This document shows positions 5,352-39,900 of a DNA stretch of 64,000 bases, piece after piece. The translations under genes and the position numbers were made by a program. The first letter of the stretch is position 1. Every line of letters begins with the position of its first letter. Source of the DNA: an uncultured Latescibacterota bacterium (GTDB lineage Bacteria; Latescibacterota; UBA2968). A model generated the notes under the pieces. That model saw only the letters and a program-made list of their open reading frames with translations. It was not told the origin of the DNA and did no database searches. Location of the stretch: the NCBI GenBank assembly GCA_958295785.1, contig OY282377.1:944394-1008393 (forward strand), in the 5' to 3' direction.

Positions 5352-6296
5352 TCATGCAACCCCCTCACTGGCTATAAGTTGCTTGTAAGTCAACCGGGCG
5401 CCCATCGCCCTATTCAACATCTCATCAACACGACTTAAGGTATCACCCTTTTTTCGATTGATGCGAAACACGCAAGCATTCAGGTACTTTTGCATGTGTT
5501 TGTCTGACCCGTGGTGATGAATACCCATATAGACACGCTTAACCAATGCCCACAAACTCTCAATGGCGTTCGTATGGACACCATCGCGTTCATATTCGTC
5601 GGCAGAATGATTGATTTGTTCCCCTTCGTAATCATCCCTCAATGCGCCGTATGCGCGGTTCTCGTCTGCATGAATAGTTGCGCCCGTCAAGACCTGGTTC
5701 AACATCTGATCGTGTCATGTGGCCCCTTTTGCATCCTGTACATGAACCGCCATTGCCTCACCATCTTCCCCTTTTTCCCGCATTCCGAAAGCAACCGATT
5801 TACCTACTGTTCCGCGACCAGCATTCAACTTTTTGGATTTATGTTTGTTCTTTTCTTTGCCACCGATGTAGGTTTCATCAATTTCAACGATACCAGACAG
5901 AAAACCATCATCATCATCGTCTTTGTTGCCAAAAGCGTTTCGTATTCTTTGAAGCATAAACCAAGCGGTCTTTTGCGTTGTACCGATCATTTTAGCCAAC
6001 TGAACGCTTGAAATACCTTTTGAGTGGTTCGTTTCAATCCATATTGCCGCGAACCATTTAGGCAACATCTTGATTTTTGACGCGCCAAACATCGTTCCGT
6101 AAATCATATGAAAATTACGCCCACAATCCGAGCACCGATACGCCAAATCAGAACGACGATAGATTTTTCCCATACTACCACAATGCGGACAATACGCGCC
6201 ATCCTTAAAGCGTATCTTTTCAAGGTGCAAAATACACGCTTCAGGCGTGGCAAACTTCTGTGTGAACGCGACGAAACTAAGCTGCTTTGCCATCAT
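5352..6296 (-). pseudogene. IS1595-family (ISXO2-like) transposase with in-frame TGA
   Basis: It starts at MMAKQLSF (AAGGGGG upstream). The N-terminal zinc ribbon is CPHCGS...YRCSDCG at about residues 34-58. A helix-turn-helix region (GISSVQLAKMIGTTQKTAWF) and an acidic motif, GIVEIDETYIGG, follow. The frame meets TGA at 5715-5717 after DAKGAT and continues in the same frame with HDQMLNQVLTGATIHADE and the rest of the DDE domain to 5352. The second copy has the TGA at the identical place. The protein is either inactive or depends on readthrough. Confidence 0.85.
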
Positions 6297-6368
6297 ACAC
6301 CCCCTTGTTAATTCGTAACTTCTATAAATATAACAAGAATGTTTAGGGTTGGCAAGTATATAATTCCC

Positions 6369-6395
6369 TTTTTTTTTAACCGGGCTGAACACCAT
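6369..6395 (-). pseudogene. Detached 5' end of the interrupted methyltransferase
   Basis: ATG at 6395 opens the frame MVFSPVKKK that runs into the IS1595-like element. With the element and one T tract removed it joins KGKTTEQL and the rest of the gene at 5131. An alternative start at 6430, overlapping the previous stop as ATGA, reads MNQSQQATLFPIDGVQP. It needs one base deleted in the CCC run to join the same frame, so the gene may also carry a frameshift. Confidence 0.6.
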
Positions 6396-6428
6396 CAATG
6401 GGAAAAAGCGTTGCTTGTTGCGATTGGT

Positions 6429-7517
6429 TCATTTGATCCATCCAAGGCCCTCATTCAATTTCGCCACGGCGATGGCGTCCTCTTCTCGGCAGGAGTAAAA
6501 CAAGTACAACGCGCCATCCGATTTGAACAGGTATGAGTCATGCACGACTTCGCCTTCCCAATCTTCCTCGGCGCGGATGATGTCTTCGGGGGGATAACTC
6601 GTTTGCCAAGTCTGCCAGTTGCCCGCGCTCAAATTCACTGTTGAACGCACGATGTATTCGGGCACTTCCCATTTGCGACTGTAAAACGCTTCCAGTGTCT
6701 CGCCATCTTCCATGACCCGCACAGCACCGTGCCGCATGCCCAAGCCCCCATTGGGCAAGTGATCGCCGGCCAGCCCGGCCGCGATGAGGTCTTTTTCAAT
6801 GGGCGATGTTTCCGCGCACACCCACAGGGGATTGTGGGGATGCCAACCCGGGGGTAAATCCCAGGGATGAGCGGGATCGGCGGGTCGCAAAAAATATCCG
6901 CGCTGCCCAAAACCGTACCACGCTCCCCTGTATTGAAATACGCGGAGATAATTCCGATCTGCAAATATCAGCCGCTTCAGGCCACGGCCCGGTTCGCCGC
7001 CCACGCGATTGAAATTCAGGCCGTATTTCGAGGTCGCCACAAATGATCGCTGGCTCGCGTTGCTCTTTCCGTGAACGATCATGATGAAGTGCTGGTTTTC
7101 GTCATCCACGATCACTTCGGGGGATGAGACATGCCCGGTCAATACGACGCCATCTACCGCGTCAATCGTCTCGGCATCGCCCAATCGCAGGTCGAATACA
7201 CCGCGCCCGGGAAAGCGCGGATCATCCAATCTGCCGGCATTGAAAATTGTCCAATCAGGTGAATCCACGCGCTTGGACCATGCCATGTGAATGCTCGTCC
7301 CGTGGTGCGATGCAAAGTAGAGATAATACCTCGCCTGCGGATGCGCCCGATCTGCTGCGGGCACCCAGTCGGGTATCCCAACCAGGGTGGGAAACATCGC
7401 GTCGCCCCGAAACCGCGAGCGATTGGGATCTGCTCCAATGCCGAGCCGCCGCACGTCGTACCCATCCACTATCGGTTTGCCATGCAATTTCTCAATGCGA
7501 TAAGTCGCTTTTGCCAT
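6429..7517 (-). CDS. Beta-propeller protein, glycoside hydrolase 43-like fold
   Basis: 362 residues from an ATG at 7517 preceded by GGAGGA; a TTG 15 bases upstream is less likely. The sequence shows repeated propeller-blade features: YYLYFASHHGTSIHMAWS, a SPEVIVDDENQHFIMIVHG strand pair, and SYLFKSDGALYLFYSCREED near the end. These resemble GH43/GH32-type five-bladed propellers, often acting on or binding glycans. I cannot place the catalytic acids with certainty. No signal peptide is seen. The stop overlaps a possible start of the next frame (ATGA). Confidence 0.7.
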   Translation of the reverse strand: MAKATYRIEKLHGKPIVDGYDVRRLGIGADPNRSRFRGDAMFPTLVGIPDWVPAADRAHPQARYYLYFASHHGTSIHMAWSKRVDSPDWTIFNAGRLDDPRFPGRGVFDLRLGDAETIDAVDGVVLTGHVSSPEVIVDDENQHFIMIVHGKSNASQRSFVATSKYGLNFNRVGGEPGRGLKRLIFADRNYLRVFQYRGAWYGFGQRGYFLRPADPAHPWDLPPGWHPHNPLWVCAETSPIEKDLIAAGLAGDHLPNGGLGMRHGAVRVMEDGETLEAFYSRKWEVPEYIVRSTVNLSAGNWQTWQTSYPPEDIIRAEEDWEGEVVHDSYLFKSDGALYLFYSCREEDAIAVAKLNEGLGWIK

Positions 7518-17728: not shown

Positions 17729-17939
17729 AGATGACGCCTAAGAACGCAACACCTGTAGGGACAGGCCCCAGTGCCTGTCCGAAGCGATAAGCAACCACAG
17801 GCATGTCCCGTAGTGCATAAATGCGGGAGCGTTAGATGACGCCTAAGAACGCAACACCTGTAGGGACAGGCCCCAGTGCCTGTCCGAAGCGATAAGCAAC
17901 CACAGGCCATGTCCCGTAGTGCATAAATGCGGGAGCGTT
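17729..17939. repeat. Tandem duplication of about 105 bp
   Basis: Two head-to-tail copies (17729-17833 and 17834-17939) that differ by one inserted base. Each includes the short palindrome GTAGGGACAGGCCCCAGTGC, found in related form at many intergenic sites. It lies upstream of the PMT-like gene. Confidence 0.9.
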
Positions 17940-19704: not shown

Positions 19705-19741
19705 CGCAAAATTCTCCGTTCTTTATTTTTTTGAGAGCAAT

Positions 19742-19774
19742 TGAATATAGGGTTTTGATGGGGAAAGGTCAAAT
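19742..19774. repeat. 33-bp direct repeat, copy 1
   Basis: Identical to 22705-22737. The two copies bracket the 2.9-kb block holding the IS630- and IS701-like elements and lie 38 and 30 bases upstream of two divergent glycosyltransferase genes. Confidence 0.85.
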
Positions 19775-22472: not shown

Positions 22473-22767
22473 TTGATTTACTGATCTTTCATCGAGATCA
22501 TATCTAGGCGCGTGTGCGCGTAGTACGATTCTGCGGTATAAGATAGGGGGGGCATTTTTTAGGCTTATCCGATTGCATAACTTGAGCCGATTGGGTATTT
22601 TGTCAGTGTGTTGTCTCAACTGGTCTGAAGTGTCGTGGATTTGGGATATTTTGGTGAGCGACACTTTTTTTTTATTACAAAAATCGCATGATATTTAAGG
22701 CGACTGAATATAGGGTTTTGATGGGGAAAGGTCAAATGCGTGAACTTAGACCTCAAAAGGACATAGT
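22473..22767. other. Intergenic stretch upstream of glycosyltransferase
   Basis: No gene is seen. It contains GCGCGTGTGCGCG (a short palindrome near 22510) and the second copy of the 33-bp repeat. Confidence 0.4.
22705..22737. repeat. 33-bp direct repeat, copy 2
   Basis: Identical to 19742-19774. Confidence 0.85.
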
Positions 22768-23604
22768 ATGAGTGCCCGGCTGGCGGTTGTCATTGTCAAC
22801 TACAATACGCGGGACTGGCTTCAGCAGTGCTTGCACTCGGTCTATGCACAGGATATGGGCGAGGAACTGGAAATCGTTGTGGTTGACAGTGCCTCAACCG
22901 ACGATTCGGTTGATATGGTGCGGCGTGAGTTTCCCGACTGTACGCTTATTGCTTCAGAAGAAAATCTCGGCTTTGGCCGCGGCAACAACCTCGGCGCAGC
23001 CCGGAGTTCAGCTCCGATTTTGCTCTTTCTCAACCCCGATACGCATGTGACCGCCGGGGCACTGGTTGAACTGTTGCACTTTATGGAGCAGAATCCCCAT
23101 TGTGGGGCAGTTGGTGGGCAAATCTACGATGAGAAGGGGCAACAGGAACTTTCAGCGGGAACGTGGCCGACGCTTTTGAGCCTCATTTTAGACCGCGTGC
23201 CGGTGCGCTTTCACGTATTCCGCAGGCATCTGGAACCCTTGGGTCACCACTATTACCATTACGAAAAACAACGCGAGGTTGGCTGGGTGACCGGGGCCTA
23301 TTTGTGGATTCGCCGCGATCTGTTTGAGCGGTTGGAGGGGTTTGATCCCGCAATTTTCATGTACTACGAAGACGTAGAACTCTGTTATCGCCTGTGGGCG
23401 GCCGGGTCGCGGGTCTGTTATTATCCCGGCGCGTCAATCATCCACTATCGCAACAAAGGACCCATTCGCCAGCGGCACCGCAGGCTTTTGATGCTTGGGG
23501 GTTTGCGCCAGTTTGCACGCAAGCATTACGCTTGGGGCCGCCATGGGACCACGCGCTGGGTTGCAGAGTTGTTGTATTTCTTCAATCGGTGGGGCAATAA
23601 ATGA
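22768..23604 (+). CDS. Family 2 glycosyltransferase, rhamnosyltransferase-like
   Basis: 278 residues. The GT-A fold has VVIVNYNTRDWLQQCL, VVDSASTDDS, ENLGFGRGNNLG and the D-x-D-type FLNPDTHV. The acceptor region GWVTGAYLWIRRDLFE and MYYEDVELCYR matches the WbbL/RfbN-type rhamnosyltransferases of O-antigen synthesis. It is soluble or peripheral. It is the only long gene of the polysaccharide locus on the + strand, next to the IS block, so it may have been moved or inverted there. Confidence 0.9.
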   Translation: MSARLAVVIVNYNTRDWLQQCLHSVYAQDMGEELEIVVVDSASTDDSVDMVRREFPDCTLIASEENLGFGRGNNLGAARSSAPILLFLNPDTHVTAGALVELLHFMEQNPHCGAVGGQIYDEKGQQELSAGTWPTLLSLILDRVPVRFHVFRRHLEPLGHHYYHYEKQREVGWVTGAYLWIRRDLFERLEGFDPAIFMYYEDVELCYRLWAAGSRVCYYPGASIIHYRNKGPIRQRHRRLLMLGGLRQFARKHYAWGRHGTTRWVAELLYFFNRWGNK

Positions 23605-23632: not shown

Positions 23633-23740
23633 CTATTTGACCGCGTGGATGATGGTTTTGATTTTTCGGATCGGGGTTTTGCGTTCCGCGATGAGCAGGC
23701 CAATGCCGGCGCCCACCACAAAGATCGCGCTGGCGAGACG
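23633..23740 (-). pseudogene. Duplicated 3' fragment of the flippase gene
   Basis: The reverse strand encodes ASAIFVVGAGIGLLIAERK followed by TPIRKIKTIIHAVK and TAG. This is a diverged copy of the flippase C-terminus at 25251 (GGAIFVLGYGVGLLLAERK, then TLIREIKTVIHAV). Only about 36 codons remain. It lies on the other side of the ATPase gene, in the same orientation as the intact gene. Confidence 0.85.
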
Positions 23741-23758
23741 CGGGCAAAAAGGGATCAT

Positions 23759-25168
23759 TTATTCGGTCAGCAATGTTGCGATGTCGTTAGGGTCCCAAAG
23801 GTAGAGGCGTGGATCGCGGTGGTTTTTGAGCGCGGGGGTAAATCCCGATTTGGACGCGATGAGGTAGAAGGGCTGGCTGGCGTGGAGGTTTTGCGCGCGT
23901 TGTTTGAGGGCATTCAGAACGCCTGTGCCAACGGGATGAGAGGTCCATTTGCATTCGACAAAGAGGGTTTGGCGCGTTTCGCGGTTGAGGGCGACGAGAT
24001 CGATTTCGCTTTGTCTGTCCCACCAGCGGCCGATTCTGTGAAAGCAGAAAGGCGCGCGGTTTTGCCGGTTGAGTTTGAGCAAGAGTTCTCGCGTGATGTT
24101 TTCAAACGCAAAGCCCATAAATTCCGACACGTAAGTATCGAGGCGATTGAGAAAATACGAAAAGTTGCCCGATTCGTAAATGCTCAACTGCCGGTAGATG
24201 AAACGCATCCAAAAAGTGATAAAAGGGTCGCGGATTTTATAGCGACTTTTTTTTGGGCGCCAAGCTCGCTCGGTAATGGGCACTTCGCGTTCGATCAGAT
24301 CGAACAGGTCGGATAATTCGCGCAGGTATTTGGACAAGCTGGTGGCCGGCAGACCCGCAGGGCCGGCGATTTCGGACAGCCGGGTTTTGCCCGTGGCAAT
24401 GGCCTCGAGAATTGCCAAATAGGTATGCGCCGTGCCCCCAAATTCGGAAAGGATGATGTCGCGCATTTCATTGCGAAAAGGGGCAAAAGGCGTGAACAGC
24501 GCGCGGTGTAGAATTTGACGGATGGGCGTGCCGCCCAGTCCCAGACTCTCAATAATTTCGTAATAGCGGGGCATGCCGCCGAAGATGCCGTAGAGGGTGA
24601 GGATGTCTTCTGGCGATTGAAAGCCGAGGTCCGCGGCGAGTTGATAGATGGCTTCGAGGGGCAATGGGCGAAGGTCCATTGCTCGCGTGAGGCGACCGTA
24701 GAGGGGTTCTTTGGCATCTTGGAAGACTTTTTTCATCAAACCCACCACAGAACCAATGGCGATGAGATGGATTTTGGATCGTTTGTGCCAGTCGTCCCAC
24801 ACGCCTTGCAGGATGGAATAAACAGAGGGATCCACGGCGAGAAAGTTTTGAAACTCATTGAAGACGACGACCGAGGGCCGCTGCTGCGTTTCCACGAAGA
24901 GAAAAACAAAAAAATCCTTCCAGTTCGCAAAAATTGGCGCGTGGGCGATTCGCGATTTGAGCGCGGCTGAAAATTCGGACAGGAGGGCGTTTGGAGGGCG
25001 TTTTTCGACAAAGAAGTAGAGGCCGCGATTTTGAAGGTGCTGGCGCACGAGTTCTGTTTTTCCCACGCGGCGGCGGCCGAAGATCGCGGTGAATTGAGCG
25101 AATTGCTCCGATCTTTGGGTCAGATCTTGAAGGAGTGCCAGTTCGGTTTCTCTGTTGTAGAATTTCAT
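23759..25168 (-). CDS. ATPase_2/DUF234 family ATPase with nuclease-like tail
   Basis: 469 residues from ATG 25168. The Walker A motif GRRRVGKTEL is at residues 31-40, and VVVFNEFQNFL is the Walker B-like strand. A winged-helix region (TSLSKYLRELSDLFDLIE) follows, then a C-terminal PD-(D/E)XK-like motif, SEIDLVALNRET and LFVECKW. This is the archaeal-type ATPase family of unknown function, often found in mobile or defence contexts. It has its own consensus promoter and is bracketed by the flippase gene and a fragment of that gene. Confidence 0.88.
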   Translation of the reverse strand: MKFYNRETELALLQDLTQRSEQFAQFTAIFGRRRVGKTELVRQHLQNRGLYFFVEKRPPNALLSEFSAALKSRIAHAPIFANWKDFFVFLFVETQQRPSVVVFNEFQNFLAVDPSVYSILQGVWDDWHKRSKIHLIAIGSVVGLMKKVFQDAKEPLYGRLTRAMDLRPLPLEAIYQLAADLGFQSPEDILTLYGIFGGMPRYYEIIESLGLGGTPIRQILHRALFTPFAPFRNEMRDIILSEFGGTAHTYLAILEAIATGKTRLSEIAGPAGLPATSLSKYLRELSDLFDLIEREVPITERAWRPKKSRYKIRDPFITFWMRFIYRQLSIYESGNFSYFLNRLDTYVSEFMGFAFENITRELLLKLNRQNRAPFCFHRIGRWWDRQSEIDLVALNRETRQTLFVECKWTSHPVGTGVLNALKQRAQNLHASQPFYLIASKSGFTPALKNHRDPRLYLWDPNDIATLLTE

Positions 25169-25199
25169 TATTATTCTCCCAATAATTATTCTGATAAGC

Positions 25200-25228
25200 A
25201 TAATATCGGAAACGCGGGCAAATGTCAA
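25200..25228 (-). promoter_or_regulatory. Sigma-70-type promoter of the ATPase_2/DUF234 gene
   Basis: TTGACA (25228-25223), a 17-base spacer and TATTAT (25205-25200), 32 bases upstream of the start codon. Confidence 0.8.
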
Positions 25229-25250
25229 GGTGTGGGAGGCTGACCACTAA

Positions 25251-26813
25251 CTACTGCTTCGGATCGTGCCTGACCGCGTGGATAACGGTTTTGATTTCGC
25301 GGATCAGGGTTTTGCGTTCCGCCAGGAGCAGGCCAACGCCGTAGCCCAACACAAAGATCGCGCCGCCAGCGATGACGCCCATTGAAGTTGATAATGTGTC
25401 GCGCCATGCGGCTGTTGCAACGTGCAGGCCAGTGCCGAGGGCTGCGGCAATGAGCGGTGGCGCGAAGGTTTTGCCGATGGGCAAATCCACATGCGGGCGC
25501 GCCAAGACGAGGGCATAGATGAGGCCGACAACGGCCGTGGCATTGAGGCTGATGGCAATGCCCGTTATGCCCATGATGCGCCCGAGCAAGGGGGCGAGAA
25601 TGAGGAGCGCGAGGGCTTGAGCCGATGCGAATTTCGCAATGGTTTTGGGATTGCCGATGCTGTAGAACAGGGCGTGGATATCGTCGAGCACGGGGCGACA
25701 AAGGGAGTAGATGATGAGCCATTGGAGCAATGGCGCGGCGGGCGTCCATTCGGGTCTGAAGAGCAAGATCCAGCGGTTGGATTCGAGCGCGAGCACCAAT
25801 GAGATGGGAACGGTGGTGCGAAGGATGAGGCGCAGGGCGCGGCGGTACGTTGCCGAGAGTTGGTCGCGCCTGTTTTGATAGCGCGCGTACACCGCGCCGG
25901 TAATCCGCACGATGACCAGGGTGATGGCGCCTGTGGGTATTTGGGCAAAATTGTGTGCGGTGTCGTATATTCCGCGCAGGTGCAACCCGAAGAACACGCT
26001 GATGATGAGTTTGTCGTAGTGGTGGGCGAATACCTTGGGGATGCCGCCGACCCAGAACCACAGGCCGTAGCGGATCATGCGGCGTGCGGCGTCTCGGTTG
26101 AAGGTGTGCAATAGGTTCAGAGGCGGGGGATGGCGCAGCCAGACGACCGAACAGTAGAAGAGGATGTAGGTGACGCTGTATGGAAAAAACCCGAGGATCA
26201 ACGCCCATTTGCCGTATCCGAGGTACGCGAGGCCAAGGCCGACCAGGGATGCGAGCACGGTTCCGCCCGCGTGTGCAAAGGCCAGTCGGCCAAATGCGAG
26301 GTCGCGCTGGAGTTGCACTTCGGCGGTGAGGGCGGCTGTTCTGAGCAAGTCGAATATCCCCAATACGGCGAGGGCCAGGGCGACTTTGTGATAGGTTTTG
26401 CTGACGTTGTGCGCCGCGTGGGGTTCTGCGTTGCCGAGGTAGGTATTGAATGTGCGGGTGAGTTCAAGCACTTGGTCCGCGTAAAATGCCAGTGCCAAAG
26501 CGAGGATCGCGCTGATGCTGCCCGAACAGACGCTGAGCACAAAATGCGTGGGGGCGAGTTCGTGGACGCGGTCGTGTTCGTGCAACAGCGCGTAGTGCAA
26601 GCCAAAGTCGCGGATGGCAATGGCGAGGGCGAGGAGGGAATAGGCCGTGCCGACGGCGCCAAAATCTTCGGGGACGAGGAGTTGATAGAGAAAGAGGAGG
26701 ACGACAAAGTTGATGATCCGCGCGGGATAGGTGCTCCCGAAGGTTTGAATCGCGCCCCGCACAATGCGCTGAACGGCCGTGGCCGAGTGCCCGCCCTGCG
26801 CCTCATTTGGCAT
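25251..26813 (-). CDS. Polysaccharide flippase (Wzx/MATE-like)
   Basis: 520 residues from ATG 26813 (MPNEAQGGHSATAVQRIVRG). The open frame reaches 27137, but that part overlaps the upstream gene. There are 12-14 predicted transmembrane helices. Sequences such as FLYQLLVPEDFGAVGTAYSL and RYGLWFWVGGIPKVFAHHYD are characteristic of lipid-linked oligosaccharide flippases. It would export undecaprenyl-linked sugar units for surface polysaccharide. The start overlaps the end of the upstream membrane-protein gene by about 11 bases, implying coupled translation. Confidence 0.9.
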   Translation of the reverse strand: MPNEAQGGHSATAVQRIVRGAIQTFGSTYPARIINFVVLLFLYQLLVPEDFGAVGTAYSLLALAIAIRDFGLHYALLHEHDRVHELAPTHFVLSVCSGSISAILALALAFYADQVLELTRTFNTYLGNAEPHAAHNVSKTYHKVALALAVLGIFDLLRTAALTAEVQLQRDLAFGRLAFAHAGGTVLASLVGLGLAYLGYGKWALILGFFPYSVTYILFYCSVVWLRHPPPLNLLHTFNRDAARRMIRYGLWFWVGGIPKVFAHHYDKLIISVFFGLHLRGIYDTAHNFAQIPTGAITLVIVRITGAVYARYQNRRDQLSATYRRALRLILRTTVPISLVLALESNRWILLFRPEWTPAAPLLQWLIIYSLCRPVLDDIHALFYSIGNPKTIAKFASAQALALLILAPLLGRIMGITGIAISLNATAVVGLIYALVLARPHVDLPIGKTFAPPLIAAALGTGLHVATAAWRDTLSTSMGVIAGGAIFVLGYGVGLLLAERKTLIREIKTVIHAVRHDPKQ

Positions 26814-29202: not shown

Positions 29203-29970
29203 TTATATCCACGTTTGAGGTTGTTGTGCAAGGACGCGCTCGCCGAGAGGTCCAAAGTAGCACCGGCTCGTTGTAAAAAAGGGATCTAACAAGTCGTCCT
29301 CATTCGGCATTAGCACAGAGTGTACCCAAGCGTTCATCATATTTGGATGGTTAATTTGTACTGACCTGTCAACGAGATCGTTCCACCACTTTTCTCGCGC
29401 CAACCGGAGCCGTTTCGCGTTGAGGTTCAAAATCTCAATGGTGCGGATCACGCGGATAGGGGACATGCCCTCTGACCTACATGCTTCCTCATCTACTTCG
29501 ATCCGGCCATCGTGAAGGATCTTTGTAAGCGATGGCAACGCGGGCAACTTCCGAGGATCTAAAAAAACCGTGTCATTGCGGTCGCCCTTCGCTTGACCAC
29601 AACTCATATTATATCTTATCGGCTTAAGGTACCTGTCCTCATCGCGGCTTTTTTCAGAGGAAGCAAACACGGATGAAGTTCCGCCTTTGCAGCAAGCGAT
29701 CAAGTTGGTAATGTCGATCTCTCTTGATGCTCCGTGCTGTGGATCGCTTCGCGGGATAACGTGTTCAATCTGATAATCTAGCTCTGTAAGCTCAATCTCG
29801 CAGTAGGCGCAAAGGCCGTGTTGGTTTTGGGTGAGAGTGTCTCTGAGTTCTCGGTACGACGCGCCCGAATTGTGAGAACGAAAGTCCTCCCAGTTCGCAG
29901 TGCTACCCACAGCATTGAGGTATTCGGCGAGGCCGGAAGTTGGGCTGTTCAAGGCGCGAATGGTCTTCAT
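29203..29970 (-). CDS. ptuB: Septu-like HNH nuclease PtuB
   Basis: 255 residues from an ATG at 29970 that overlaps the ATPase stop as ATGA. The HNH region is CAYCEIE (residues 54-60), the IEHVIPRSD core (His70) and DITNLIACC, as in the HNH partners of Septu and retron-Ec78 systems (TIGR02646-like). The C-terminal half (NAKRLRLAREKWWNDLVD) is helical. With PtuA it would form an anti-phage complex that cuts nucleic acid when triggered. No retron reverse transcriptase or msr/msd is seen beside it. Confidence 0.85.
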   Translation of the reverse strand: MKTIRALNSPTSGLAEYLNAVGSTANWEDFRSHNSGASYRELRDTLTQNQHGLCAYCEIELTELDYQIEHVIPRSDPQHGASREIDITNLIACCKGGTSSVFASSEKSRDEDRYLKPIRYNMSCGQAKGDRNDTVFLDPRKLPALPSLTKILHDGRIEVDEEACRSEGMSPIRVIRTIEILNLNAKRLRLAREKWWNDLVDRSVQINHPNMMNAWVHSVLMPNEDDLLDPFFTTSRCYFGPLGERVLAQQPQTWI

Positions 29971-31259
29971 TGCGATTTCGCCATCTGTTTGAACAGCTCG
30001 CGCTGCTTGATTTCGAGTTTGGCCCTGTTGAGGGCGGGATCGTGGGGAGACATACGTTCGAGGTTCTTCCGCAAAGCCAAGGCTTCTTCGGACTTCCACT
30101 GCCCTTCTCTGATTAGATGCCGATATTGATTCAACGCTTTTGTGAACTCATTCTCGGGCGGTCGCTCATCTACCCCCATCACCACGGACAGAACATCGCC
30201 TGCCTCGGCGCCATAAGTTGCCCCAGACGCTGTCCCGGCCGCAATGCAGTCGGCATCTCGATACAGTTCCACAATGCGCTGTGGCTCGACTGTGGTCAAT
30301 ACCTGTGGGCTGTGGGTAGAGACGATGAATTGCGTATTCGGGAAGGTCCGCCGCAGGTCGTCCAAGACGCGCTGTTGCCAAGCCGGGTGCAAGTGGAGTT
30401 CGATCTCGTCGATCAGCACAACCGCTTTGGATTCGAGGGGGTTGTCCAAATAGGGATTGCCCTGTGCCATTCGCCGCGCGATGTCTGCCGCCAGTGCCAG
30501 CACGATGCGATAGCCACCGCTCAACTGGTTGAGCGCGAGGTTCTCTACCCGTCCATTGGATTTCACGGATACGACGAAACGGGTCGGATTCAACTCGAAC
30601 CGCGGATCGGATACTTCCGGGAGCATGGACGAGATCGCTCGGCGAACCGCGGATAAATCCTTTAGCTGATAATCGAAATCTCGTCTCACTTTTTGCGCCC
30701 TCAGTTCCTCGTCCTCTTTGGCATAGAACCAAGTGAAGAGAGCCTCAAAATTCGCCTGAGCGGACAATGCCCCCTCCAGCGCGGCTAAACGGGAAAATTT
30801 GCGAATATGCCTGGGATCACCTGGCACCTCCGGCATACTTGAGGCCGTGCGGTCCGTATCGTAAAAGGCGACTATCGGCATCTCGTTTTGACTCGTGGGG
30901 TCGTACTCATCCATATTTTTTCGTCTGAACGCCAACAGAACCTGCTTTTGCTTCTTCGACTGCTCGTCCGCCCAATCATCCCCTCGCCATTCCCATGTAA
31001 ATTCTCCATCTCTATCGATTCTGGAGACGCAGATTCGCGGCGGCCCCGCGCCCTCGCGCCAATCCTCCTCGCAAGAATCAAGGGTCGATTTATCGAGAAA
31101 ACCTCCCATCATATCCCCTAAGCCAATCGCAATCGCGTTCAAAACGCTCGTCTTGCCGTATCCATTGGCCCCGTGAAAGACCGTCAGCGATGGGTCGAGC
31201 GGCAGGTCGAGTTTTTCAATGGCGCGATAATTTTCAATTTTTACAGATTTCAATTTCAC
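29967..31259 (-). CDS. ptuA: Septu-like ATPase PtuA
   Basis: 430 residues, SMC/ABC-type ATPase. The GTG start has AGGAGGT upstream. Walker A is HGANGYGKTS (residues 29-38), the signature is LNQLSGGYRIVLALA, and Walker B is KAVVLIDEIELHLHP, followed by the FIVSTHSPQVLTTV switch. The C-terminal helices (NEFTKALNQYRHLIREGQW...) are typical of PtuA. The partner ptuB overlaps by four bases. A promoter lies 76 bases upstream. Confidence 0.88.
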   Translation of the reverse strand: MKLKSVKIENYRAIEKLDLPLDPSLTVFHGANGYGKTSVLNAIAIGLGDMMGGFLDKSTLDSCEEDWREGAGPPRICVSRIDRDGEFTWEWRGDDWADEQSKKQKQVLLAFRRKNMDEYDPTSQNEMPIVAFYDTDRTASSMPEVPGDPRHIRKFSRLAALEGALSAQANFEALFTWFYAKEDEELRAQKVRRDFDYQLKDLSAVRRAISSMLPEVSDPRFELNPTRFVVSVKSNGRVENLALNQLSGGYRIVLALAADIARRMAQGNPYLDNPLESKAVVLIDEIELHLHPAWQQRVLDDLRRTFPNTQFIVSTHSPQVLTTVEPQRIVELYRDADCIAAGTASGATYGAEAGDVLSVVMGVDERPPENEFTKALNQYRHLIREGQWKSEEALALRKNLERMSPHDPALNRAKLEIKQRELFKQMAKSQ

Positions 31260-37275: not shown

Positions 37276-37318
37276 GTTGGGAGTTGTCCGTTGTCAGCCC
37301 GCCCGACCCCCATCACCC

Positions 37319-37357: not shown

Positions 37358-38665
37358 TTAGCGGGGTAGGTCCCCTATTCTCTGTCTGATGGCGTTGGCG
37401 TGGGCGTCGAGGCCCTCGGCTTCGGCCATGTCGATGATGTGGCCTGCGGTTTTTTGCAGGCGTTGGTCGGTGTATTGCAAGATGCTCATGGTTTTGGTGA
37501 AGGTGTCAACGCCAACGGATGACGCGAACCGCGCCGTGCCGGCGGTGGGGAGAATGTGATTGGTGCCGGCGTAGTAGTCGCCCACGGGTTCAGACGATGC
37601 CGCGCCCAGAAAGACGGCGCCGGCATGGCGAACCGATTGCACGAGTGCCCAGGGATCGGCGACGATGAGTTCGAGGTGCTCGGGCGCGATGCGATTGGCG
37701 AGGGCTATACCCTCGGCGAGATCGTTGACGATGACGATTGCGCCAAAGCGGTTGAGCGCGTTTTTGATGGCCTCGCGGTGCGTGAGGTCAGCGGCTTGCG
37801 CGGCAACTTCACCGGCGATTTGAGACGCGAGTTCCGCGCAGGGCGTGATGCAGACCACCGCTTCAAAGCCGCTGCCGTGTTCGGCTTGTGAGAGCAGGTC
37901 CGCGGCGACATACTTGGCGTTTGCGGTCTCGTCGGCGAGTACGACGATTTCGCTGGGGCCGGCGACCATGTCGATGTCAACGGTTCCAAAAACGAGTTTT
38001 TTGGCAATTTGAAGATAGGGGTTGCCGGGGCCGACGAGTTTGTCAACCGGGGGTATGGTTTGGGTGCCGTAGGCGAGTGCGCCCACGGCCTGCGCGCCGA
38101 AGACTTTGTAGATTTCGCGTATCCCCAGGCTGTGGGCCGTTGCTAGTACGGTGGGGTGAACCGCGCCATTTGCCTGGGGGGGCGTTGCGATGCAGAGTTG
38201 CGGAACGCCTGCGATTTGCGCGGGGATGGCGGCCATGAGCAGGGTTGAAAACAGCGGCGCACTCGCGCCGGGAATGAGCAGGGCAACGCGGTTGAGCGGG
38301 AGGACGCGCTTGCCGAGCACAACCCCGTCGCCATCTTCGATGAACCACGAGTTTTGCCGTTGTGCCTCGTGAAATTTGCGGATATTTGCCGCGGCGGCGG
38401 CGATGATTTCGAGGAATTTGGGATCGGCGTTGTCATAAGCCGTTTTGATTTCGGATTCGGGCACGCGCATGTCGGCAGATGTCATGTCAATGCCGTCAAA
38501 TTTTTTTGTATAGGCGAGCAGGGCGCGGTCGCCGTGTTCTTTTACAGCGGCGACGATCTCGTGCGCGGTTGCTTCTTGCGCGGCTGAAAAATCGGGAGTG
38601 CGCGAGAGAATGGCGTCGAGCTTTGCGCTGCCGGGCGCGTTTTTGATGATTTCGATCACAGTCAT
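37358..38665 (-). CDS. hisD: Histidinol dehydrogenase
   Basis: 435 residues from ATG 38665 (MTVIEIIKNAPGS); the frame stays open to 38695. The family signatures are present: LIPGASAPLFSTLLMAAIPA, VDKLVGPGNPY, DMVAGPSEIVVLADE, and the HLELIVADP and NHILPTAGTARF motifs near the zinc and base residues. It oxidises histidinol to histidine. A diverged copy of its first 84 codons lies at 39623-39900, beyond the methyltransferase gene. Confidence 0.97.
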   Translation of the reverse strand: MTVIEIIKNAPGSAKLDAILSRTPDFSAAQEATAHEIVAAVKEHGDRALLAYTKKFDGIDMTSADMRVPESEIKTAYDNADPKFLEIIAAAAANIRKFHEAQRQNSWFIEDGDGVVLGKRVLPLNRVALLIPGASAPLFSTLLMAAIPAQIAGVPQLCIATPPQANGAVHPTVLATAHSLGIREIYKVFGAQAVGALAYGTQTIPPVDKLVGPGNPYLQIAKKLVFGTVDIDMVAGPSEIVVLADETANAKYVAADLLSQAEHGSGFEAVVCITPCAELASQIAGEVAAQAADLTHREAIKNALNRFGAIVIVNDLAEGIALANRIAPEHLELIVADPWALVQSVRHAGAVFLGAASSEPVGDYYAGTNHILPTAGTARFASSVGVDTFTKTMSILQYTDQRLQKTAGHIIDMAEAEGLDAHANAIRQRIGDLPR

Positions 38666-38772
38666 GTCACTCGTTCTATTTGTCGCCTTCTTCACTATCC
38701 AATGATTTTTTTGTCGGCATACAGGGCGTCAATCCGTTCTCAGATCGCAGGCATTCGTTTGATGGTCGTTAC

Positions 38773-39540
38773 CTAAAAGTCCAACTCGGCCTGCGAGTTT
38801 AGCGTCTCGATGCGATTCCGTATCAGTTTGCAATAATCAGAGTTTATCTCAAAAGCGAGACACTGCCGTTTGTGCTTGAGACAGGCTTCGATAGTTGTGC
38901 CTGATCCCGCAAAAGGATCTAGCACAATGCCATTTTTTGGACAACTGGATTTGACCATCCTCTCGATTATTTTTACCGGTTTCTGAGTAGGGTGATTTTC
39001 GCGCTCTTTGTGTAATCTGTGCAATCGAGCAACGCGCCACACATCTTTCGGATTGTAACCCATTTCCAACCATTTTTTGCCTACGAATATGGAACGGGTA
39101 CGCGTTTTTTTGGTTTCGCAGTCGTAGGGAATTCGCACAGCATCTAGATCAAAGTAATACTTCTTTGACTTGGCAAAGAATCCGATGGTGTCGTGTACGG
39201 ATGAGAATCGCCTCGTCGTCCCGCCCATACTGGGAACTTTGCGATCCCAGATGATTTCGTTGACCATCATCATCCGCGTTTTGATAAACGAAAATATCTC
39301 CGGCGAAAATCGCCAAGTGGTGAAAATGTACAAACTGCCAGTTTCTTTGAGCTTTGGCACTGCCGCCTCAATCCATGCTTGAGTCCACTTCAGAAACGCT
39401 TGAGCGTGCATCATATCAGACTCATTGCCAAAGTCTTTGCCCAAGCCATACGGCGGATCAGCAATAACCAAATCCACAGAATCATCGTCAATACGGTCAA
39501 CGCCGTCCAAGAAATCCTCATTGAAAAGTGTGTAATTCAC
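38773..39540 (-). CDS. DNA methyltransferase (beta-type N4/N6)
   Basis: 255 residues. Motif IV DPPYGLG is near residue 30, WDRKVPSMGGTTRRFSSVHD is the target loop region, and NHPTQKPVKIIERMVK precedes motif I, VLDPFAGSGTT. The beta order (IV before I) is clear and all motifs look intact. The start is GTG at 39540, overlapping the stop of a short upstream frame ending SRSIVLR (GTGA). No restriction enzyme is adjacent, so it may be an orphan. It is bracketed by intact hisD and a hisD fragment. Confidence 0.92.
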   Translation of the reverse strand: MNYTLFNEDFLDGVDRIDDDSVDLVIADPPYGLGKDFGNESDMMHAQAFLKWTQAWIEAAVPKLKETGSLYIFTTWRFSPEIFSFIKTRMMMVNEIIWDRKVPSMGGTTRRFSSVHDTIGFFAKSKKYYFDLDAVRIPYDCETKKTRTRSIFVGKKWLEMGYNPKDVWRVARLHRLHKERENHPTQKPVKIIERMVKSSCPKNGIVLDPFAGSGTTIEACLKHKRQCLAFEINSDYCKLIRNRIETLNSQAELDF

Positions 39541-39622: not shown

Positions 39623-39900
39623 GCTTGGAGTTTGTCGTTGCGCTTCGTGAAATTTGGGATTGGCGTTGTCATAGGCCGTTTTGATTTCGGATTCGGGCAC
39701 GCGCATGTCAGCAGATGTCATGTCAATGCCGTCAAATTTTTTTGTATAGGCGAGCAGGGCGCGGTCGCCGTGTTCTTTTATATCGGCGAAGATCTCTCGC
39801 GCGGTTGCTTCTTGCTCGGATGAAAAATCAGGGGTGCGCGAGAGAATGGCGTCGAGCTTTGCGCTACCGGGTGTGCCTTGTTCAGATGATTGCGATTATG
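39623..39900 (-). pseudogene. hisD 5' fragment
   Basis: The reverse strand repeats hisD codons 1 to about 84 with roughly one change per 10-12 bases. It lacks a start codon, contains an early TGA and has a 42-bp deletion between short GAATTTG repeats. Residues such as EHGDRALLAYTKKFDGIDMT remain readable. It has the same orientation as intact hisD. Confidence 0.88.

What the first reader, a model, noticed from the sequence alone, without database searches (positions are those of the whole stretch)
23633..26813. Second case: ATPase_2/DUF234 gene bracketed by the flippase gene and its 3' fragment
Intact flippase (26813-25251), an ATPase with its own consensus promoter (25228-25200), then a diverged copy of the flippase C-terminus (23740-23633), again in direct orientation. 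Together with the hisD case this suggests a repeated mechanism: accessory genes arrive attached to a piece of the target gene that restores it. The ATPase family, with a PD-(D/E)XK-like tail, has no agreed function and is often in mobile contexts.
Basis: partly seen in the sequence, partly recalled or inferred. Interest (0 to 1): 0.74.

Follow-up and report, generated by a model that had tools for sequence, protein, structure and literature searches.

The report
Defence ATPase bracketed by flippase tail
In a Latescibacterota genome a candidate anti-phage gene sits between an intact flippase gene and a decayed copy of that gene's last 93 bases, and at least seven other places in the same genome show the same layout, mostly around defence genes, which suggests that defence genes enter this genome beside ordinary genes by a recurrent but not yet proven route.

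Summary
In detail: an 88% identical, 93-nt direct repeat (23638-23730 and 25271-25363) brackets an ATPase_2-winged helix-PD-(D/E)XK gene with its own promoter. The ATPase matches PADLOC candidate defence family PDC-S27 and folds like STAND/Orc-type ATPases.

Comparison with 10 same-genus genomes changes the story. The ATPase sits behind the same flippase in four of them without any fragment. Three of the five flippase-bearing genomes that lack it keep its orphaned promoter palindrome, so loss is recurrent. The fragment occurs only here, is a sister of this genome's flippase tail, and has drifted. ATPase and fragment are therefore separable. DUF234 ATPases elsewhere are not generally flanked by neighbour-gene pieces (1/56 versus 3/166 control genes).

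In 2.0 Mb (35%) of this genome I curated nine host-gene-end brackets. Six hold strong PADLOC matches (PDC-S27, two methyltransferase or restriction-modification loci, HEC-01, PDC-M38, NsnB-like); a seventh holds a TIR gene. About 7 of 107 random genes match as strongly.

Most likely mechanism: one-sided recombination anchored in the neighbour gene, leaving the resident gene end as an orphan. Tandem duplication and long-target-duplication insertion, known for restriction-modification genes, are not excluded.

The parts
25251..26813 (-). intact flippase gene (Polysacc_synt_3, 520 aa); its last codons (HDPKQ region) differ from all same-genus relatives
25271..25363 (-). 93-nt 3' segment of the intact flippase, first copy of the direct repeat
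25200..25228 (-). ATPase promoter TTGACA-17-TATTAT (11 of 12)
   Evidence: the TTGACA leader is conserved in relatives
25169..25205 (.). imperfect palindrome (minus strand TATTATGCT...AGAATAATA) overlapping the -10 box: probable operator. In relatives the exact pattern is found once per genome and only at this ATPase, or as a scar where the ATPase has gone
23759..25168 (-). ATPase_2 - winged helix - DUF234/PD-(D/E)XK gene, 469 aa, PADLOC PDC-S27; Walker B Asp104 replaced by Asn; nuclease motif E388xD390...E405xK407 intact
23633..23738 (-). orphan flippase 3' fragment (about 34 codons, native-like stop), second copy of the direct repeat, drifting without constraint
22768..23604 (+). family 2 glycosyltransferase, tail-to-tail with the fragment (about 28 nt between): the resident right flank
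   Evidence: a 75% homolog in G002 lies 5.5 kb from its flippase
37358..38695 (-). hisD, host gene of the companion case
38773..39540 (-). N6/N4 DNA methyltransferase (PADLOC MTase_II), cargo of the companion case
39644..39896 (-). orphan hisD 5' fragment of the companion case (253-nt pair at 91%; 228-nt core at 93%)

Best explanation
The locus is a site beside a conserved gene at which a mobile single-gene defence candidate (PDC-S27: STAND/Orc-like ATPase, winged helix, PD-(D/E)XK nuclease) comes and goes. SHOWN: the ATPase is present or absent at this site across the genus; occupied relatives have no fragment; empty relatives carry what read as deletion scars; the fragment is a sister of this genome's flippase tail and looks unconstrained; the layout host / defence cargo / host-end fragment recurs in this genome. 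INFERRED: the fragment is the resident flippase 3' end. Incoming DNA from a sister lineage carrying flippase tail plus ATPase paired with the flippase by homology on its left. It was joined illegitimately on its right inside codon ~483 of the resident gene, because the downstream glycan genes differ between strains and offer no second homologous arm. The incoming tail completes the gene; the resident tail is left as an orphan and decays. This is homology-facilitated illegitimate (one-sided) recombination. INFERRED FUNCTION: the ATPase represses itself through the palindrome over its -10 box and, when triggered by phage, oligomerises and cuts DNA. In this genome the Walker-B Asp-to-Asn change may have weakened it.
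For: Occupied/empty polymorphism and scars. Palindrome unique to the ATPase or its scar. Right flank non-homologous between genomes, with several different downstream contexts. Fragment versus intact tail: 11 derived sites shared against nine other genomes, 6 changes private to the fragment (5 at codon positions 1-2), 5 private to the intact copy; the fragment keeps states that the intact gene lost. Recurrence: nine curated host-end brackets in 2.0 Mb, six with strong PADLOC cargo against about 7 of 107 random ORFs (p = 4e-5; 4/7 and p = 0.0015 without the two window loci; uncurated 6/19, p = 0.005, or 4/17, p = 0.044 without the window loci). Variable duplication length (65 to 543 bp) in unrelated host genes argues for an arbitrary illegitimate end. 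Donor-like state seen: HEC-01 behind the same aminotransferase in G001 and G002. Empty site seen: ADH next to the selB-like gene in G006 and G007. Precedent: V. cholerae orphan immunity genes (PMC5361080).
Against: No sampled genome is the donor or the pre-event resident, so the crossover inside the flippase cannot be shown. ATPase divergence (82% to other genus members, which share about 93%) parallels the flippase (74% versus about 91%), so simple vertical inheritance plus a local duplication also fits. The altered C-terminus of the intact flippase could equally mark the left edge of an insertion with target duplication. The anti-phage function of PDC-S27 is unvalidated (PMC12988326).
Confidence: 0.47

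Rival explanations
1. Insertion with long target duplication: in this lineage alone a DNA piece of about 1.5 kb (leader, ATPase, about 19 nt) was inserted into the flippase two codons before its stop, duplicating about 95 bp of target. The ATPase of the other genus members at the same site would be an independent arrival.
For: The intact copy ends in non-native codons (VRHDPKQ*) while the fragment keeps a native-like end. This ATPase and its leader are closest to the Binatia copy (86%), not to the other genus members (82%). Long target duplication is documented for restriction-modification genes (PMC3874152, PMC1643837), and this genome has a restriction-modification pair bracketed by a 543-bp, 99% copy of a nucleoside-hydrolase-like gene end.
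Against: It needs two independent insertions of the same ATPase family, in the same orientation, behind the same gene. ATPase divergence is what vertical inheritance in the genus predicts.
Confidence: 0.25
2. In-situ tandem duplication of [flippase tail + ATPase], followed by loss of the second ATPase, as ATPase loss is common at this site.
For: The ATPase is probably ancestral at the site. Loss scars occur in several relatives. Both repeat copies are of one lineage.
Against: It needs two to three events (duplication, deletion, loss of the native stop and spacer). No trace of a second leader or ATPase follows the fragment. It does not explain the hisD and ADH cases, in which relatives lack the cargo.
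Confidence: 0.2
3. Integrase-type element using gene ends as attachment sites (as e14 in icd, recalled from general knowledge), with the recombinase supplied in trans.
For: The layout (restored gene, cargo, displaced end) is that of an element integrated into a gene end.
Against: There is no recombinase in the bracketed stretch. Host genes are unrelated and the duplications are diverged and of different lengths with no common core. hisD is duplicated at its 5' end.
Confidence: 0.05

Closest known systems
Insertion with long target duplication of restriction-modification genes (Nobusato et al. 2000; cited in PMC3874152 and PMC1643837)
   Same: Single defence gene or pair between a complete gene and a partial direct copy of order 100 bp; relatives have an empty site (hisD, ADH).
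   Different: Cargo here is mostly not restriction-modification (PDC-S27, HEC-01, PDC-M38, NsnB-like, TIR); copies are often diverged (83-99%); in two cases relatives carry the same cargo at the same site, for the flippase demonstrably without the duplication.
Homology-facilitated illegitimate recombination; orphan immunity-gene arrays of V. cholerae T6SS (PMC5361080)
   Same: Conserved anchor on one side, non-homologous join on the other, displaced resident 3' piece left downstream.
   Different: The anchors are unrelated housekeeping or glycan genes and the leftover piece has no apparent function.
PDC-S27 candidate defence ATPases (PADLOC; PMC12988326)
   Same: ATPase fused to a PD-(D/E)XK nuclease, single gene, patchy distribution, HMM match E 3e-55.
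   Different: This copy has Asn instead of the otherwise near-invariant Walker-B Asp; the genus lineage carries a conserved palindromic operator.
Archaeal ATPase_2 proteins of known structure (2qen, 2fna) and STAND/ORC ATPases
   Same: The model (pLDDT 91) matches them best.
   Different: They cover about 350 residues; the C-terminal nuclease is additional.

Membership tests
PDC-S27 / ATPase_2-DUF234 | HMM match over nearly full length | tested here: met
   PDLC04985 E 2.9e-55, residues 7-433; DUF234 and ATPase_2 above cut-off
PDC-S27 / ATPase_2-DUF234 | Walker A and PD-(D/E)XK catalytic residues | tested here: met
   GRRRVGKT and E388xD390...E405xK407 invariant in 32 homologs and present here
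PDC-S27 / ATPase_2-DUF234 | Walker B acidic pair | tested here: not met
   NE instead of DE at 104-105 in this genome only; membership rests on the full-length match, so this lowers the claim of activity rather than of kinship
PDC-S27 / ATPase_2-DUF234 | Anti-phage activity | not testable with these tools
   Unvalidated also in the literature (PMC12988326)
Insertion with long target duplication | Cargo between complete gene and partial direct copy | tested here: met
Insertion with long target duplication | Relatives without cargo have one uninterrupted target and no fragment | tested here: inconclusive
   Met for hisD and ADH. For the flippase, empty relatives bear ATPase scars and occupied relatives lack the fragment
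Homology-facilitated illegitimate recombination | One homologous and one illegitimate junction | tested here: inconclusive
   Right junction shares no sequence with relatives; left crossover not locatable without a sister genome
Homology-facilitated illegitimate recombination | Donor-like arrangement exists | tested here: met
   Flippase-ATPase without fragment in G003, G006, G008, G009; aminotransferase-HEC-01 in G001, G002
Integrase-type integrative element | Recombinase gene or common att core | tested here: not met
   None in the flippase-ATPase bracket; unrelated duplicated sequences

The most novel reading that the evidence does not exclude
In this genus, ends of ordinary conserved genes serve as homologous docking points through which many kinds of defence genes are exchanged between strains by one-sided recombination, without any mobile-element enzyme, leaving countable orphan gene ends that date each arrival.
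Probability: 0.33. Interest if true: 0.75.

Novelty: new variant of a known kind. Interest (0 to 1): 0.56.

Why it matters
How small defence genes without a transposase or integrase move between bacteria is an open question. If the layout found here is general, orphan ends of neighbouring genes are footprints that reveal recent arrivals, allow dating, and point to undescribed defence genes (for example the AAA_22 gene behind a PD40 protein). It would also show that long target duplication is not special to restriction-modification genes.

Tried and rejected
Rejected: that DUF234 ATPases as a family carry flanking neighbour-gene pieces. One tight 146-bp bracket in a Sulfuricurvum genome (L137) is intergenic; other hits are terminators, low-complexity or leader repeats. 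Rejected: chance repeat (E 1e-29). Rejected: the palindrome as an independent mobile repeat, since it occurs once per genome and only with the ATPase or its scar. Rejected as part of the pattern: a bracket at 4215267 in the genome that looks like a diversity-generating retroelement (reverse transcriptase plus a small accessory ORF, repeat at the end of a SUMF1-like gene), and many multi-copy repeats. Not decisive: gene trees (ATPase and flippase forks poorly supported). No sequence match in the PDB by phmmer; no Rfam family. Phage and plasmid records hold only distant relatives (<60%). The PADLOC control count (about 7 of 107 at E <= 1e-45) is inferred from the family table, which does not list members. 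The nine host-end brackets were curated by hand and the host at 802115 is uncertain.

Full report
OBSERVATION. A direct repeat of 93 nt at 88% identity links 23638-23730 with 25271-25363. The second copy is the 3' end of an intact flippase (26813-25251, minus strand; Polysacc_synt_3). The first is an orphan open frame of about 34 codons (23738-23633) that ends in its own stop. Between them, on the same strand, lies a 469-codon gene (ATG 25168 to 23759) with ATPase_2, DUF234 and a restriction-endonuclease-like C-terminus. It has a TTGACA-17-TATTAT promoter at 25228-25200.

WHAT THE ATPASE IS. It matches PADLOC PDC-S27 (E 2.9e-55), a candidate single-gene defence family described as an ATPase fused to a PD-(D/E)XK member and not yet validated (PMC12988326). 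In 32 aligned homologs the Walker A motif and the nuclease residues E388xD390...E405xK407 are invariant. The Walker-B Asp104 is near-invariant but is Asn in this genome. The predicted structure (pLDDT 91) matches the archaeal ATPase_2 structures 2qen and 2fna best, then ORC/Cdc6 and STAND/NLR proteins. A nuclease-armed STAND-like sensor that controls its own promoter is the natural reading; it is inference.

RELATIVES. The genome is a 5.66-Mb Latescibacterota assembly; the phylum follows from named records whose contigs match same-genus hits. Of ten same-genus genomes, G003, G006, G008 and G009 have the ATPase directly behind the same flippase (82-85% identity) and no flippase fragment. G001, G002, G004, G007 and G010 have the flippase without the ATPase; G005 has no flippase match. 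The ATPase leader carries a palindrome, TATTATTCT...AGAATAATA, overlapping the -10 box. An exact-pattern search of 60 genomes found it once in each of nine: beside the ATPase in G003, G006, G008, G009, G040 and G041, and behind the flippase without the ATPase in G001, G002 and G010. The window copy has one mismatch. These orphan palindromes are best read as deletion scars: G003 reads ...CCAATAAAAATAGGGG after the ATPase stop, and the scars read AGAATAATAAAAAATAGGGG, a join at AATAA. G004 keeps only the TTGACATT part. ATPase loss is therefore recurrent, and the ATPase probably predates the fragment at this site.

MOBILITY OF THE ATPASE. Copies 84% identical occur in another family (G040, G041) with the same leader, between an acetyltransferase-like and an oxidoreductase gene; G034 and G046 show the empty site. 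A copy 86% identical occurs in a Binatia genome, with a related leader. None is bracketed by direct repeats. Over 56 DUF234 loci, bracketing by a piece of a neighbouring gene is no commoner than for control ORFs (1/56 versus 3/166). Bracketing by any repeat is slightly commoner (10/56 versus 13/166, p = 0.04) and is almost entirely intergenic. So the family as such does not travel with gene pieces.

AGE AND NATURE OF THE FRAGMENT. Against nine same-genus flippases, the fragment and the window tail share 11 derived sites. Six further changes are private to the fragment, five of them at codon positions 1 or 2, and five are private to the intact tail. The fragment keeps ancestral states (for example Ser, Ile, terminal Lys) that the intact copy lost, and the intact copy ends in VRHDPKQ* where relatives and fragment end near ..K(S)*. 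The fragment is therefore a sister allele or copy that arose on this genome's own branch and has since drifted without visible constraint.

IS THERE A REPEATED MECHANISM? The hisD companion is clean: five relatives have TPR and hisD directly joined, with neither methyltransferase nor fragment. I then scanned 2.0 Mb of this genome (35%) for low-copy direct repeats 0.7-5 kb apart. I curated nine brackets in which one copy is the end of a gene and the other an orphan. Host gene / cargo: Type ISP restriction gene / TIR protein (126556); zinc dehydrogenase / NsnB-like AAA ATPase plus a small gene (329211, 97%); LolD-type ABC ATPase / IS1595-like transposase (388493); uncertain host / PDC-M38A+B (802115); flippase / PDC-S27 (968031); hisD / MTase_II (982801); PD40 protein / AAA_22 ATPase (1248016); nucleoside-hydrolase-like gene / type II restriction enzyme plus methyltransferase (1474447, 543 bp at 99%); aminotransferase / HEC-01A+B (4064750, 247 bp at 99%). 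Host names without a Pfam hit here (LolD, IS1595, nucleoside hydrolase) are my reading of the sequence. Six of nine hold a PADLOC match at E <= 1e-45, against about 7 of 107 random ORFs (p = 4e-5; without the two window loci 4/7, p = 0.0015). Without curation, for all two-copy brackets with an ORF inside, it is 6/19 (p = 0.005) or 4/17 (p = 0.044). For ADH, relatives G006 and G007 have the downstream gene (the selB-like GTPase) directly after ADH, and none of the ten relatives' loci has the insert within 1.5 kb. For the aminotransferase, G001 and G002 carry HEC-01 at the same place. Thus both empty and occupied states exist among relatives, which one-sided recombination between strains predicts.

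MECHANISM. I favour homology-facilitated illegitimate recombination: one homologous arm in the conserved gene, one illegitimate join in the non-homologous flank, the resident gene end left behind. The precedent is the V. cholerae immunity-gene arrays (PMC5361080). Two rivals remain: insertion with long target duplication, known for restriction-modification genes (PMC3874152, PMC1643837), and tandem duplication with loss. The altered C-terminus of the intact flippase and the closeness of this ATPase to the Binatia copy favour the former rival; the parallel divergence of ATPase and flippase favours the latter or vertical presence. Only sister genomes can decide.

VERDICT. The specific story (this ATPase arrived with the piece that restored the flippase) is not established, and the ATPase appears older at the site than the fragment. 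The general story (defence genes repeatedly bracketed by host gene ends in this genome) is supported and extends a known phenomenon to other defence cargo and to another phylum.

Noticed in passing
window 29203-31259 (minus): Septu-like pair: PtuA (PADLOC E 1e-117) and PtuB HNH (6e-60), within the same glycan gene region; PtuB homologs also lie near the flippase in G006, G007 and G008.
   Followed up: partly
window 19737-19774 and 22700-22737: A 38-nt repeat (95%) that reads as a promoter (TTGACC-17-TATATT on the minus strand) flanks a 3-kb stretch with two transposase loci; nearly the same promoter occurs in G004, G006 and G010 glycan loci.
   Followed up: no
window 17729-17939: A tandem repeat of about 105 nt (two perfect copies) containing a GGGACAGGC-type hairpin that recurs at 37311.
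   Followed up: no
window 24840-24880 (ATPase codon 104): Walker-B Asp replaced by Asn only in this genome; the ATPase of G009 is frame-broken. The gene may be decaying in several lineages.
   Followed up: partly
L124 (Binatia, OY282432.1) 6010-7419: ATPase 86% identical to the window's across phyla, with a related palindromic leader: recent transfer between phyla.
   Followed up: partly
own genome about 4211661-4217094: Probable diversity-generating retroelement: SUMF1-like kinase genes with variable 3' ends, a small accessory ORF and a reverse transcriptase.
   Followed up: no
own genome about 327370-331490: 3' end of a zinc dehydrogenase gene holds two successive AAA-ATPase defence-like pairs before the selB-like gene: a possible defence hotspot.
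   Followed up: partly
own genome 1473058-1477500: Type II restriction enzyme and methyltransferase bracketed by a 543-bp, 99% copy of a nucleoside-hydrolase-like 3' end, with an adjoining 211-bp, 100% repeat.
   Followed up: partly
L137 2680-2825 and 4301-4446 (Sulfuricurvum): A DUF234 ATPase tightly bracketed by a 146-bp, 92% intergenic direct repeat, next to a possible toxin-antitoxin pair.
   Followed up: partly
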